DNA of 64,000 nucleotides from a virus. Position numbers and translations under genes: made by a program. Location of the stretch: positions 21,419 to 85,418 of IMG/VR virus record IMGVR_UViG_3300031673_000012; one strand, given 5' to 3'. This document shows positions 3,214-64,000 of this stretch, piece by piece. The notes under the pieces are model-generated. The model was not told the origin of the DNA, searched no databases, and saw only the letters and a program-made list of their open reading frames with translations. The first letter of the stretch is position 1; every line of letters starts with the position of its first letter.

Positions 3214-4019
3214 TAATATTTTGATTTAATGCGGAATTGGTTCACCTTATTTTTTTTATAATAAATTTCATAAAGAGATTCTGGAGTAAACCCAGCAAAA
3301 TAAAAGAATTTAAATAAGGCTAAAGTAGTATCTCTTATAGCCACCTCATATTGTCTGGTATCAGTCATCATCTCAGTTTGTTTCCAGGGTTTATTTTTAA
3401 GAGTATTTCTAGCTATTTGAAGATGGTAAGTTATATCCCAAAGATACTGTTTCATTATATCCCTTCTATTACTCCCCAATTGTCTTCCACCCCTAAGAAA
3501 TTCGTCTTCAAGCATGTGATCCTTTATTACCCATCTACATGGAATTTTCTTTGCAGCAACTTCTGAGTTAACTACCAAGCCCCCAAAATCATACCATGAT
3601 TTAAATAAATCAGATACCACAACGTATTCATCCATAACATAGGATAACCAATTCTCAAGTATTTCTGTTTCATAACCAGAATAAAGCATTAATTCCAACC
3701 AAAAATGAATGGCATCTGAAATTTCTTCATTAAAATTTTGTAAATGAGGGATCATTTCTTTTTCATCTATTCCCTGATGAAACATGTCCATCATGATTAA
3801 ATAAGATTCAAAACCTTCACCGAGTTCCTCAATAATCCTACCAGTAAAATCTTTTATCAATACCTGAGATTCCCGAGTATTAATATCAACAGGATAAAAA
3901 GGTAAATGTCCTTCTATCCCAGCATAATGATCTATAAGTACTTTTTGTAGATCAAAGATATCCTTAAAGGCTGATGCTCCAGGATATTTTACATTTTCTC
4001 TAATGTCTCGTACATCCAT
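3213..4019 (-). CDS. All-alpha dUTPase/dCTPase-like NTP pyrophosphohydrolase
   Basis: The 268-residue protein fits the all-alpha NTP pyrophosphohydrolase superfamily (dimeric dUTPase/MazG type). The metal-binding signature is seen as EELGE (residues 64-68, ExxE-like EExxE) followed by EISD (99-102, ExxD) on the next helix. The C terminus (LYEIYYKKNKVNQFRI) resembles the Lys/Asn/Arg-rich C-terminal helix of dimeric dUTPases. Such enzymes hydrolyse dUTP, and in T4-like phages (gp56) also dCTP, giving the monophosphate plus pyrophosphate. In this operon the product would feed the thymidylate synthase/dCMP hydroxymethylase-like enzyme two genes downstream and would also remove unmodified dCTP or dUTP. 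Family confidence is good; dUTP versus dCTP preference cannot be read from the sequence. Confidence 0.75.
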   Translation of the reverse strand: MDVRDIRENVKYPGASAFKDIFDLQKVLIDHYAGIEGHLPFYPVDINTRESQVLIKDFTGRIIEELGEGFESYLIMMDMFHQGIDEKEMIPHLQNFNEEISDAIHFWLELMLYSGYETEILENWLSYVMDEYVVVSDLFKSWYDFGGLVVNSEVAAKKIPCRWVIKDHMLEDEFLRGGRQLGSNRRDIMKQYLWDITYHLQIARNTLKNKPWKQTEMMTDTRQYEVAIRDTTLALFKFFYFAGFTPESLYEIYYKKNKVNQFRIKSKY

Positions 4020-4024
4020 AATAA

Positions 4025-4423
4025 TTAATTTTGATCATAAATTTGTTTGATTATATTTTTGGGTAAATTTAACTCATGAGCAACAAGAATTATGGTTTTT
4101 AATCTTTTATACCCTTTTTTCTTATACTCCTCAATGATTCCTTTTACTCGTTCTTTTTTCTTTAATATTTCCTCATCTGCTTCTTCAATATCCTTAAATC
4201 TTTGTTTAGATTCTATTTCAATCCTTTCCTTATGTAATCCCTGAGCCTTAACTATTGCACAAAAATCTGCATCACCACACTCTTTACATTCTGCAGCAAG
4301 TAAATCATGATACTTTCCAAAACATGGATCATCATCAGACCCCAAAGATAATACATCTAATGGTTTTAAAAAATCATAATCATCTTTATTTATTTCTTCT
4401 CTTGGTGTTCTTTCTTTTGCCAT
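4025..4423 (-). CDS. Small protein with Cys cluster and coiled coil, unknown function
   Basis: The 132-residue protein is not recognised. Around residues 34-56 it has four cysteines (PCFGK, then ECKECGD, then FCAIV) that could bind zinc or an iron-sulphur cluster. After this comes a long charged helix rich in Lys and Glu, and then a C-terminal segment that could form a small helical domain (HELNLPKNIIKQIY). It lies between the helicase gene and the dUTPase-like gene with short spacers, so it is probably expressed with the replication genes. A role in DNA or RNA binding is possible but not shown. Confidence 0.6.
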   Translation of the reverse strand: MAKERTPREEINKDDYDFLKPLDVLSLGSDDDPCFGKYHDLLAAECKECGDADFCAIVKAQGLHKERIEIESKQRFKDIEEADEEILKKKERVKGIIEEYKKKGYKRLKTIILVAHELNLPKNIIKQIYDQN

Positions 4424-7765: not shown

Positions 7766-9191
7766 CTTCTAAATCTTTATTTCTTAATTTTCTTCTTGAA
7801 CCTTCATAACTATTATCTCTCGTATCTGAACCATCAGAAGGGTATGATTTATTATACTCTTCTAATTCTTTTTTCGATAACGGTCTTAATAATTGTATTA
7901 CTGGATCAATCTTAAAAATTACTTTACCATGTGGTGGTCCATCTCTTTGATCTATAATAGTTAATCTTTGATACCCATTTGTTTCTTCTCTTTCAGATCT
8001 ATTCAATCCATATAAAGCTTGAACATGTCTAGTGATATCAATAGCTCCAGCAACATCAGTAGATTCATAAATCTTTCCTTCCCTTTGTTTAGCAGCTTCT
8101 CTAGTAACATGTTGAGCAGTCCAAACTAAATCAATATTTTTTTCCAAAGCCAAATTCCCCATATCAATATAAGCTTCTGATATCCTTTCATGAAGAGAAT
8201 CTTTACCAGATATACAACCCATTTTAGAAACATAATCTATAACAAGAATATCAACTTGAAAACCATATTCCCGATACAAATAATCTATATAATTCCCAAT
8301 ATCTGTAGCTGTAGTTACAAGTGAAGGCATTCTTTTAACTATAATCTCACCACCATGCCTTTTACTTTTACGTAATGATTCCCTTACTACCTGATCTACA
8401 TCACCATCTTCATCTAATAACTCCTTTTTAGTTACACCGGCTACACATTGTTCAATCCTCATTAAAATTTCATCCTCCCCATTATCCAAATCTATAATCA
8501 GAACATTCTTTTTATACCTTTGCATATATCTTAAAGATATATTAATAAGTACCCCTGTTTTAAATTTCTTAGCTCGATCAAGAACAACCAATATACTCCC
8601 TTTAGAATATCCTCCAGCATTTGTTAACCTATTTAATTGTTCCCATGGCATAGTAATAATAGAACCTTTTTCTTTTCTTTTAACTTGCCTTAATCTTACA
8701 TCACGAACTAAAAATGTTCCCTTTTCTTCTATCTTCTGAATACGAGGGGCAATAGCTTTTTGAACCTTTCTAGAAAATATATCATATTGTTCATAATCCA
8801 ATAAATTAATATTTTCTATCTCATGTTTTAAATCTACGTATTGTGCAAATTTTTCTGTACTAGCTAAGATTTCGTCACCATCTTTAATTATACCTTTAAA
8901 TAAATCAGAAGCAATAGATAATATTTCTTTTCTATCATTATCAGTAAGATTATTAACAAATTCTCGATTATCAAATGTTTTATGTAATTCTTCAAATAAA
9001 ATAGTTTTTCCAGGAATTGTTTTTCGCCTTTTATAATAAGACTTTAAAGTAAAAGCTATTACAGCATGTTCAACTAAAGTAAAATAAGAATCATCATATA
9101 ATTCTATTACCTTATAACCGTTTTTATCCTGAACTGTATATTTTAATAAATCTAATTGAAAATCAGTAGTGAATTTGAATTTCATAATCAC
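7755..9191 (-). CDS. DnaB-like replicative helicase with unusual P-loop
   Basis: The 478-residue protein has the layout of a hexameric replicative helicase: an N-terminal helical domain, a linker, and a RecA-type ATPase domain from about residue 175. The strand and helix around the nucleotide site are recognisable (GGYSKGSILVVLDRAKKFKTG), but the expected GxxGxGKT loop is replaced by DRAKKFKTG, keeping only Lys211-Thr212. Walker B is ILVIDY (Asp319) and later AQHVTREAAK fits the arginine/sensor region. The C terminus is acidic and Ser/Arg-rich. It is the first gene of the leftward replication operon. Either the altered loop still binds ATP or the protein is a degenerate paralogue; the first seems likelier because the rest is conserved. 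Confidence 0.78.
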   Translation of the reverse strand: MIMKFKFTTDFQLDLLKYTVQDKNGYKVIELYDDSYFTLVEHAVIAFTLKSYYKRRKTIPGKTILFEELHKTFDNREFVNNLTDNDRKEILSIASDLFKGIIKDGDEILASTEKFAQYVDLKHEIENINLLDYEQYDIFSRKVQKAIAPRIQKIEEKGTFLVRDVRLRQVKRKEKGSIITMPWEQLNRLTNAGGYSKGSILVVLDRAKKFKTGVLINISLRYMQRYKKNVLIIDLDNGEDEILMRIEQCVAGVTKKELLDEDGDVDQVVRESLRKSKRHGGEIIVKRMPSLVTTATDIGNYIDYLYREYGFQVDILVIDYVSKMGCISGKDSLHERISEAYIDMGNLALEKNIDLVWTAQHVTREAAKQREGKIYESTDVAGAIDITRHVQALYGLNRSEREETNGYQRLTIIDQRDGPPHGKVIFKIDPVIQLLRPLSKKELEEYNKSYPSDGSDTRDNSYEGSRRKLRNKDLEDAE

Positions 9192-9278
9192 CCAATTAAC
9201 TTATGCAACATTATTATATAGTATATAGTATAATCCCAAAGAACTAGTAACCTTGTTAAAAGAATTTGCCTTAATGTA

Positions 9279-9310
9279 TTTGCATATTAAATAAATATAT
9301 ATTATATTTG
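9279..9310 (+). promoter_or_regulatory. Bacteroidota-type promoter upstream of the sigma-like gene
   Basis: The bases TTTG (9279-9282) and TATATTTG (9303-9310) are separated by 20 bases. This matches the known primary promoter pattern of Bacteroidota (-33 TTTG, 19-21 bases, -7 TAnnTTTG). The ATG of the downstream gene is at 9334, giving a short leader. The match is exact for both boxes. AT-rich DNA can yield such matches by chance, but the position is what one would expect for a host-recognised early promoter. Confidence 0.55.
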
Positions 9311-9333
9311 AATTACAATACTAATTATAAAAA

Positions 9334-9984
9334 ATGGAAATACATAGATTAGTACCCATGAAAGAAGGTTATGATCAAAACCTTTTCAACAAATTATACA
9401 AAGAAACTGAGGGCTTAAGGAATTTATTAACTTATCAAATCGATGCTAGAAGATATGGAGTAACTCCAGATATTATACACTCTTGGTTTGATGATAAATT
9501 TATCTGGGTATTTAATAAATATTATGGGGAATTATCAGAAGGCCAATTAAAAGGTAGATTAATTAATTCCCTTAAAACATTTAAATTTAGGATATTAAGA
9601 AAAGCATATTCTAAATATAATATCCATATTAACGAAGTCAGATTAGAAGGAGAAATGAATCTAATAAATATTATCCAAATAGAAGAAGAAATATCAAATC
9701 ATGATTTGTTTTTAGAAATGGCATTAAAATACCTTAAGAAAAATTTATGTGATGATGCTTATTTAATTTTAGAATTGGAATTAAATCCCCCACCATATAT
9801 ACTTAAAAGAATTAGTTCATCCAAAACGAAAATACCCAGCAAATTACTTGCTGAGTATTTAGATTTAGAACCTATTAAAAATAGTTCTTTATATATAAAT
9901 GAACTTAGATCTGAAATAGGTTCATGTATTGAATGCGCTAAAAATTATTTTTCTAAACAGTCGTTTGCCATGCAAGTACAGTAA
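9334..9984 (+). CDS. Putative phage sigma-like transcription factor
   Basis: The 216-residue protein is tentatively assigned. The middle segment (FDDKFIWVFNKYYG ... LKGRLINSLKTFKFRILRKAY) resembles a sigma region 2-like helix set. The C-terminal part (IPSKLLAEYLDLEPIKN followed by INELRSEIGSCIECAKNYF) could be a region 4-like helix-turn-helix. It is the only plus-strand gene between two minus-strand blocks, follows a host-type promoter, and faces the tail genes. That would suit a regulator that turns on the late block. No diagnostic catalytic residues exist for this family. Its 3' end overlaps the convergent fibre gene by 32 bases. Confidence 0.45.
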   Translation: MEIHRLVPMKEGYDQNLFNKLYKETEGLRNLLTYQIDARRYGVTPDIIHSWFDDKFIWVFNKYYGELSEGQLKGRLINSLKTFKFRILRKAYSKYNIHINEVRLEGEMNLINIIQIEEEISNHDLFLEMALKYLKKNLCDDAYLILELELNPPPYILKRISSSKTKIPSKLLAEYLDLEPIKNSSLYINELRSEIGSCIECAKNYFSKQSFAMQVQ

Positions 9985-62243: not shown

Positions 62244-62313
62244 GAATAAGGATTAGAATTAAACACGTATATAGGCCCAAATTTTTGTATTTTTAGGCAA
62301 TCTAGGATTTTGG

Positions 62314-62346
62314 GGGCCCCAAACAGGATTAGAGGGCTCTTTTTTT
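62314..62346 (+). terminator. Rho-independent terminator of the plus-strand block
   Basis: GGGCCC (62314-62319) pairs with GGGCTC (62334-62339; one G-U pair) around a 14-base loop and is followed directly by seven T residues. It lies about 70 bases after the last plus-strand gene. The stem is short but the T run is convincing. Confidence 0.55.
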
Positions 62347-62415
62347 GTGAGGTAGAAGAGCTTTTAGTAGTTTTGGTTGCGAGCAGAAGAGCTTTTGGAG
62401 GTTATTTAGGGCCTT

Positions 62416-62445
62416 ATTAGGATTAGGATTAGGATTAGGATTAGG
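62416..62445. repeat. Tandem hexamer array (ATTAGG)x5
   Basis: Five perfect copies of ATTAGG (equivalently GGATTA) run in tandem. Similar words occur at about 62250, 62303 and 62327. The array lies in the gene-free region between convergent genes. Such arrays can be protein-binding iterons, slippage products or telomere-like repeats. Confidence 0.9.
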
Positions 62446-62523
62446 ATTTGATGATCTCTTAATTACGCGTAGGGTTGTGGTTTTGGAAATGGCATACGGT
62501 ATCAGTATAATTAAATTTGATTA

Positions 62524-62556
62524 AATAAAAAATGGGATACAGATTGTATCCCATTT
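62524..62556 (-). terminator. Rho-independent terminator downstream of the 133-residue gene
   Basis: On the minus strand, ATGGGATAC and GTATCCCAT form a stem with a 5-base loop (arms around 62532-62540 and 62546-62554), followed by TTTTTT. It lies just past the stop of the gene at 62578-62979. Confidence 0.8.
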
Positions 62557-62577
62557 ATAATTAAGGGGTTAAAAGAT

Positions 62578-62979
62578 TTATTCCTGGGTTAACCTTGCAA
62601 GGGCATTGTATCCCTTGTCCAAAATTCCCCGTTTCTCGGGTGATTCTTTAATCGAAACCCTGGTATAATTTTTGCTATCCCTGAGGTTAGCTTGATTAAA
62701 TACCGTAAGGGCCTGAGCATGAGCAGATATGGTCTTAGCATTCTGCTTAGTTAAGATACTGTGCAACAGGGATTTGCAGAGGGATAATTGCTCCCCTCTT
62801 AATTTTCTTCTTGCTTTCTTAGCATTGTCCCCCAACGCATTGGCATTCCAGATTTCCCTTGACTCCATCCCTTTGGCTATCAGGGAGTTAATGTTAAGGT
62901 TTTTAAGGTCATTTGCAATTTCCTCGATTGCAATTCCCTGACTATCAGGGAGTTTGGGTGATTTTTCTGTTGTTTTCAT
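62578..62979 (-). CDS. Hypothetical protein, repeat-region gene
   Basis: From ATG 62979 (MKTTEKSPKLPDSQG) the 133-residue protein is helical and basic (KKARRKLRGEQLSLCKSLLHSIL), with a Gln/Asn/Ala-rich later part (KTISAHAQALTVFNQANL). The upstream ATG at 63015 would add 12 hydrophobic residues and is less likely. No family was recognised. It is visibly GC-richer than most genes here and is followed by a clear terminator, so it seems a separate transcription unit. Confidence 0.6.
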   Translation of the reverse strand: MKTTEKSPKLPDSQGIAIEEIANDLKNLNINSLIAKGMESREIWNANALGDNAKKARRKLRGEQLSLCKSLLHSILTKQNAKTISAHAQALTVFNQANLRDSKNYTRVSIKESPEKRGILDKGYNALARLTQE

Positions 62980-63337
62980 GATTGCATTTATTAAATGGTT
63001 AAAATTAAAATACAATATAAATTTAATAAATCCAAATCACTTTTGCAAGGAAACCGCATTATTTTTTCATTGTTTCGAATTAATCTAAATAAGGCCTTTA
63101 TGCGGCCAGACTGGCTTCAAAGGCTTAAAACGAGGCCAGACGGGCCTATTGGCTCGAAGCTTAGCTCGCAATGTGGCTCGAGGGCTTTATAGCTTGAAGT
63201 CCTTGAGGCCTTATCTTATCTTTTAATGATATCTTTACTTTCCGAGTTACCAGCCGAAAAGGCCCTATAGCTCTTTAGCTCGAGGACACAACGAGGCCCC
63301 GGAGCTGGATAGCTTCAGGGCCCTAAAGCTTAATGGT
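62980..63337. other. Gene-free region with dense short repeats and small hairpins
   Basis: The stretch of 358 bases has no convincing gene. From about 63090 to 63310 it becomes GC-rich and repetitive, with several GGCC-centred small hairpins (for example GCCAGACTGGC near 63106 and AGGCCAGACGGGCCT near 63134) and three GGCTCGA/AGCTCGA words. It may hold a structured RNA leader or a replication element. Promoter boxes for the 133-residue gene probably lie near 63000-63060. Confidence 0.55.
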
Positions 63338-63973
63338 TTAAGGTAATTCGTCTACGTCTACTATGTCTATTTTTCGTCTTTTAAAGGAGTCTCTATCAGG
63401 GCCTTGTGGCTTCTTAACTGATTGGTTATCAAGCTCTAAGGCGGATGAGCCTTCTTGGTCAGGAGGCGATAAAGCCTCGGTGCCAGATCTCCTTTCTCGG
63501 ATGTCGGAAAAGTCCCCTATTCCGTATTCCTCATACAGCTGATCCGCTGCTTGAGAGAATTCTGATTCTGATACAGGAGTTTGGTTAGCTGGTAGACTTT
63601 TGTGATCTTTGACTGGTAATTGTTTATTTTGTATTATTTCGAGTGCCTGATCAGGAGAAATAAATTGATTATCCTTAGAAGGAGAATTATTTATTAGTTG
63701 AAGCACGTTAGTTGTATTAGTATTAGATGTGAAGAAGGTTTTGTAAGAATCTATTAAATTCTTGTTGGAGTCGAGTAGGATTTTTAGGGCCTTAGTGACT
63801 TCGGCTGATATAAATGGTTTGTAAGCATCGCCTTGGGATTTAATGAGTTTGTCTACCTGGTTAGAAATTAAACCTCTATCTTGTATTGCCCAAGAAGTAG
63901 ATAAAGTAATAATAGATTCTAAAGTATTTTTTATGTTTTCGGGGCTGGCTAGGCTACCCATGTTGGTACCCAA
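63338..63973 (-). CDS. Hypothetical protein at the edge palindrome
   Basis: The 211-residue protein is not recognised. It has a Ser/Thr/Asn-rich N-terminal half (IKNTLESIITLSTSW, FFTSNTNTTNVLQLI), a central acidic stretch (QAADQLYEEYGIGDFSD) and a basic, nuclear-type-looking end (FKRRKIDIVDVDELP). Two ATGs compete: at 63973, inside the palindrome centre, and at 63961. Its first codons are therefore part of an inverted repeat that may continue outside the window. If that repeat is an artefact, the start is uncertain. Confidence 0.45.
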   Translation of the reverse strand: MGTNMGSLASPENIKNTLESIITLSTSWAIQDRGLISNQVDKLIKSQGDAYKPFISAEVTKALKILLDSNKNLIDSYKTFFTSNTNTTNVLQLINNSPSKDNQFISPDQALEIIQNKQLPVKDHKSLPANQTPVSESEFSQAADQLYEEYGIGDFSDIRERRSGTEALSPPDQEGSSALELDNQSVKKPQGPDRDSFKRRKIDIVDVDELP

Positions 63974-64000
63974 TATGGGTAGCCTAGCCAGCCCCGAAAA
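63936..64000. repeat. Long palindrome reaching the window edge
   Basis: The arms 63936-63966 and 63970-64000 are complementary over 31 positions, with the outer 25 perfect and a single G-T mismatch inside, around a three-base centre (TAC). The right arm ends only because the window ends, so the true length is unknown. This is either a real inverted terminal or telomere-like structure or a read-through artefact of an assembly end. Confidence 0.9.

What the first reader, a model, noticed from the sequence alone, without database searches (positions are those of the whole stretch)
63936..64000. Perfect long palindrome at the window edge
The last 65 bases fold onto themselves over 31 positions, with only the centre and one mismatch breaking it, and the arm is cut by the window end. 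Possible meanings are a hairpin telomere site (as in protelomerase phages such as N15), the junction of a large inverted repeat, or a folded-back assembly artefact. The start codon of the 211-residue gene lies inside.
Basis: seen in the sequence. Interest (0 to 1): 0.6.

Follow-up and report, generated by a model that had tools for sequence, protein, structure and literature searches.

The report
Fold-back artefact at a contig end
The long palindrome is where a phage assembly stops in the middle of a conserved gene and briefly reads back along its own opposite strand, most likely a library or assembly artefact and not a hairpin genome end.

Summary
The palindrome is real in the letters: arms 63936-63966 and 63970-64000, 31 nt, one G/T mismatch, 3-nt loop TAC. 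It is far beyond chance and by far the longest in the record. But base 64000 is the end of the contig (an 85,418-bp IMG/VR phage record), so nothing follows it. The ORF said to start inside it is a 5'-truncated gene. Sixteen of 26 related records and Phage DP carry homologues, nearly all 264-317 residues, and our MGSLASPE... aligns near residue 80 of them. So the left arm is ordinary mid-gene coding sequence, and the right arm is its reverse complement. Near-complete relatives (74-88 kb) mostly have short terminal overlaps as of closed circles, with cuts at varied sites. None has terminal inverted repeats or a detectable telomere resolvase. Gene order puts our contig start just upstream of the truncated gene, so the true neighbour of the contig end is probably the contig's own start. 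The tip (TTGG-TAC-CCAA plus a G.T) is the geometry of self-primed snap-back. Best explanation: a fold-back read or assembly artefact (confidence 0.88). A real inverted junction in the population cannot be excluded without the reads. Interest is low.

The parts
63936..63966 (+). Left arm of the palindrome: native coding sequence, read on the minus strand as the middle of a conserved phage gene
   Evidence: in frame with the ORF and aligned with homologues (MGSLASPE with LGALLSPE of record G013)
63967..63969 (.). 3-nt loop TAC between the arms; the flanking TTGG/CCAA, extended by G63962.T63974, is the proposed snap-back seed
   Evidence: 4-bp stem also in the DNA fold
63970..64000 (+). Right arm: reverse complement of the left arm; bases 63975-64000 (26 nt) are the proposed artificial copy; 64000 is the last base of the contig
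63338..63974 (-). 5'-truncated gene (the '211-residue ORF'); homologues have about 80 more residues at the N-terminus
62244..63337 (.). GGCC-rich stretch downstream of the truncated gene, with one small minus-strand ORF (62578-62979); probably native, as Phage DP has a GGCC-rich noncoding region at the corresponding place

Best explanation
The palindrome is a fold-back artefact at the end of a phage contig. A DNA end inside a protein-coding gene folded on itself through a tiny self-complementary seed (TTGG-TAC-CCAA, extended by a G.T pair). A polymerase, during end repair or amplification, then copied the strand back, giving 26 bases of exact reverse complement. The assembler appended such a read, or a path made of such reads, to the contig and could go no further. 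The true continuation is the missing 5' part of the same gene and, some way on, the contig's own start, because genomes of this phage group map as circles. Shown: mid-gene position, homologues intact across the site, circular mapping of relatives, no recognisable telomere resolvase, exact contig-end position. Inferred: the snap-back chemistry and the step at which it happened.
For: The palindrome ends on the last base of the contig. The ORF has homologues in 16 of 26 related records and in Phage DP, 264-317 residues long except for one record that itself begins inside the gene; ours begins near residue 80. Relatives have short terminal overlaps as of closed circles and no terminal inverted repeats. 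In record G017 and in Phage DP the homologues of our contig-start genes lie just upstream of this gene in the same order. None of the other fetched sequence ends has a comparable fold-back (best 13 of 16). The tip has the seed-and-extension geometry described for library artefacts by PMC3946424; palindromic chimeric reads with mismatched bases are reported in PMC10908179.
Against: No reads are available, so artefact and real junction cannot be told apart directly. The seed is only 4 bp plus a G.T, and the native stretch folds no better than shuffles. For a fold-back read to reach a contig, several reads or a low-coverage end are needed; coverage is unknown.
Confidence: 0.88

Rival explanations
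1. A real inverted junction exists in part of the phage population (head-to-head dimer, inverted duplication, or a broken replication end that folded and was copied in vivo), and the contig ends where the assembler met its own reverse complement.
For: The letters would look the same: perfect complementarity outside a small tip, contig stopping within the second arm.
Against: It would cut a gene that is intact in relatives. No relative has terminal inverted repeats, and within the record nothing beyond the 65 bases matches in reverse.
Confidence: 0.07
2. Hairpin telomere: the phage has a linear form with covalently closed ends made by a telomere resolvase (N15 type), and the palindrome is the telomere read around its tip.
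For: Long palindrome exactly at the contig end.
Against: No ResT/TelK-type resolvase in the record or in 12 near-complete relatives; the site is in the middle of a conserved gene; relatives map as circles; the contig's other end has no comparable palindrome.
Confidence: 0.02
3. A genuine short palindrome in the genome, for example a protein-binding site, a terminator or a hairpin within the gene, at which the assembly happened to stop.
For: The structure is a strong hairpin; Rfam scores it weakly against microRNA hairpins, below their gathering cut-offs.
Against: The T run precedes the stem and the A run follows it on either strand, the reverse of an intrinsic terminator. The exact 21-mer of the arm is in no other held viral contig. 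Homologues continue as coding sequence at this point, with no sign of a mirrored MGSLASPE.
Confidence: 0.03

Closest known systems
Palindromic (fold-back) sequencing-library artefacts (Star et al. 2014, PMC3946424; BMC Genomics 2024, PMC10908179)
   Same: Short natural self-complementary seed, one native arm and one copied arm at a sequence end, mismatch near the tip.
   Different: Those were shown on single reads against a reference; here only an assembled contig end is available.
telRL palindromes of telomere phages (N15, PY54, vB_YenS_P840; PMC10612081)
   Same: A long palindrome.
   Different: No resolvase gene found, site inside a conserved gene, imperfect palindrome, relatives map as circles.
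Phage DP SC_6_H4_2017 (MT121964.1) and related IMG/VR phages
   Same: Collinear genome, terminase 60% identical, homologue of the truncated gene at the expected map position.
   Different: Their copies of the gene are complete (one record starts inside it), and their fetched ends show no comparable fold-back.

Membership tests
Fold-back (snap-back) artefact | One arm is native sequence, the other is absent from intact relatives | tested here: met
   left arm aligns in frame with homologues that continue as coding sequence upstream; comparison is with relatives of about 30% protein identity, not with the same phage
Fold-back (snap-back) artefact | Short self-complementary seed at the tip | tested here: met
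   TTGG-TAC-CCAA with a G.T next to it
Fold-back (snap-back) artefact | Lies at the end of a read or contig | tested here: met
   last base of the arm is the last base of the record
Fold-back (snap-back) artefact | Supported by few reads while others continue normally | not testable with these tools
   no reads available
Telomere phage (N15 type) | Telomere resolvase gene, next to the palindrome | tested here: not met
   PF16684 has no match in the record or in 12 relatives; a resolvase outside that family, or in the unsequenced gap, would be missed
Telomere phage (N15 type) | Palindrome outside essential coding sequence | tested here: not met
   inside a gene conserved in 16 of 26 related records and Phage DP
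Telomere phage (N15 type) | Linear form with covalently closed ends | not testable with these tools
   relatives map as circles, but virion and intracellular forms cannot be seen from assemblies
Junction of a large inverted repeat | Sequence beyond is the reverse complement over a long stretch | tested here: inconclusive
   within the record only the 65 bases themselves match in reverse; no terminal inverted repeats in relatives; no sequence exists beyond 64000

The most novel reading that the evidence does not exclude
A real inverted junction (hairpin-capped or head-to-head genome form) arises at this gene in part of the phage population, as a product of replication or packaging.
Probability: 0.05. 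Interest if true: 0.4.

Novelty: not a real feature. Interest (0 to 1): 0.06.

Why it matters
It matters mainly as a caution: a contig end that folds back can pass for a telomere or an inverted repeat, and an apparent start codon in it can hide a truncated gene. Checking the interrupted gene against relatives settled most of the question without reads. The practical result would be to trim the last 26-31 bases of this record and not to annotate the ORF at 63338 as a complete 211-residue gene.

Tried and rejected
Chimera with another genome: the last 1.7 kb differ in codon usage and GGCC/CpG content, but the gene lies where the Phage DP map predicts and Phage DP has a similar GGCC-rich noncoding region there, so a foreign tail is not needed; a join with a close relative is not excluded. 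Hairpin telomere: rejected. Terminator: wrong T/A polarity. RNA families: only sub-threshold hits, microRNA hairpins at the palindrome. Searches that led nowhere: the arm 21-mer and the truncated protein, alone or as a two-row alignment, in viral contigs, the protein in genome contigs and plasmids, solved structures. An apparent crowding of relatives' contig ends near this gene was considered as a sign of a physical end; most of those ends overlap each other as circle cuts, so it was not used as evidence.

Full report
Observation. The inverted repeat is present as described: arms 63936-63966 and 63970-64000, 31 nt, one mismatch, 3-nt spacer. It is the longest near-palindrome of the whole record, the next having 18-nt arms, and about 7e-10 such structures would be expected by chance at this base composition. 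The window is bases 21419-85418 of an 85,418-base IMG/VR virus record on the + strand.

What the record is. It is a tailed phage, collinear over some forty genes with Phage DP SC_6_H4_2017 (MT121964.1, 75.5 kb, human faeces), in reverse orientation and with a different cut of the map; the terminases are 60% identical. Further relatives with terminases mostly 57-86% identical were found in viral contigs, twelve of them 74-88 kb long. Of these twelve, eight have an exact terminal direct repeat of 21-127 nt (21, 21, 44, 59, 79, 99, 123, 127, with a further 123), as assemblers leave on closed circles, counting nine in all; in two more an overlap is visible in the printed ends but inexact or short of the tip; one (G004) shows none. 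None has a terminal inverted repeat. The group thus maps as a circle, physically circular or circularly permuted.

What the palindrome interrupts. The ORF 63338-63973 on the minus strand, taken as a 211-residue gene starting in the palindrome, matches a 282-residue protein of Phage DP (E 2e-4 in the collection; 6e-11 alone). A two-row profile finds it in 16 of 26 related records. Apart from one record that itself begins inside the gene (G024, 203 codons), the homologous frames are 264-317 residues long. Our MGSLASPENIKNTLESI aligns with, for example, LGALLSPEKIEDTLRTA in record G013, about 80 residues into the protein. The left arm is therefore ordinary coding sequence in the middle of a gene, and the ATG in it is an internal methionine codon. 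The right arm repeats the same codons on the other strand (MGSLASPE).

Where the true neighbour lies. In record G017 the homologues of our contig-start genes (record bases 8792-9421, 3895-4191, 2001-2285) precede the homologue of the truncated gene in that order. The Phage DP map agrees: 66.7 kb, 71.3 kb, then 73.2-74.1 kb. So the contig end and the contig start face each other across a gap that holds the missing 5' part of this gene. The tail of the contig (62.3-64.0 kb) has unusual codon usage and is GGCC-rich, but Phage DP has a GGCC-rich noncoding region at the corresponding place, so the tail is probably native.

Mechanism. At the tip, GTTGG and CCAAT face each other across the loop TAC: four Watson-Crick pairs and one G.T, which is the single mismatch of the palindrome. 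Beyond it the copy is exact for 26 bases to the contig end. This is the form expected if a 3' end ...CCAAT folded onto GTTGG and was extended with its own strand as template. Star et al. propose that process for Illumina libraries: hairpin formation by short natural reverse-complement sequences, exonuclease trimming, polymerase fill-in (PMC3946424). Palindromic chimeric reads with mismatched bases are reported in PMC10908179. The DNA fold of the native stretch contains the 4-bp stem but is not more stable than shuffles, so the seed is weak and the event need only be rare. None of the other fetched sequence ends shows a comparable fold-back; many of those loci are whole contigs or contig ends, but some are cut from longer contigs, so the count of true contig ends tested is smaller than the number of loci. 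The chemistry, and the step at which it occurred, are inferred.

Alternatives. A hairpin telomere is unlikely: no ResT/TelK-type resolvase in the record or in 12 relatives, the site is in a reading frame, and relatives map as circles. In telomere phages the resolvase gene lies next to the palindrome (PMC10612081). A terminator would have the opposite T/A polarity. A real inverted junction in part of the population would give the same letters and cannot be excluded without reads; nothing in the relatives suggests one.

Verdict. An ordinary artefact at a contig end, with a truncated gene that should not be annotated as complete.

Noticed in passing
L011:5390-7930: The terminase large subunit of this close relative is one open frame of 846 residues with an in-frame insert of roughly 340 residues that begins with Cys, ends in His-Asn before Thr, and contains an HNH-like stretch: it looks like an intein with a homing endonuclease. 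No RNA intron family matched. A gut phage fragment (MT835790.1) also matches the terminase in two pieces with a larger span.
   Followed up: partly
63338-63961 and homologues L163-L178: The truncated gene belongs to a family found in 16 of 26 related records, with no convincing Pfam or PHROG match; the missing N-terminal part looks helix-turn-helix-like by eye.
   Followed up: partly
62250-63337: GGCC-rich, unusually composed region at a strand switch, with an (ATTAGG)5.5 repeat at 62416-62448; Phage DP has a GGCC-rich noncoding region at the matching place, so it may be a control or origin region.
   Followed up: partly
L086:7923-8008 (end of MT121964.1): The last 85 bases of the Phage DP record are an exact copy of bases 74066-74150, next to a promoter-like stretch; possibly an assembly end at a repeat.
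   Followed up: no
L179:1-610 (record G024): Another relative's contig also begins inside the same gene, about 60 residues in, without a palindrome.
   Followed up: no
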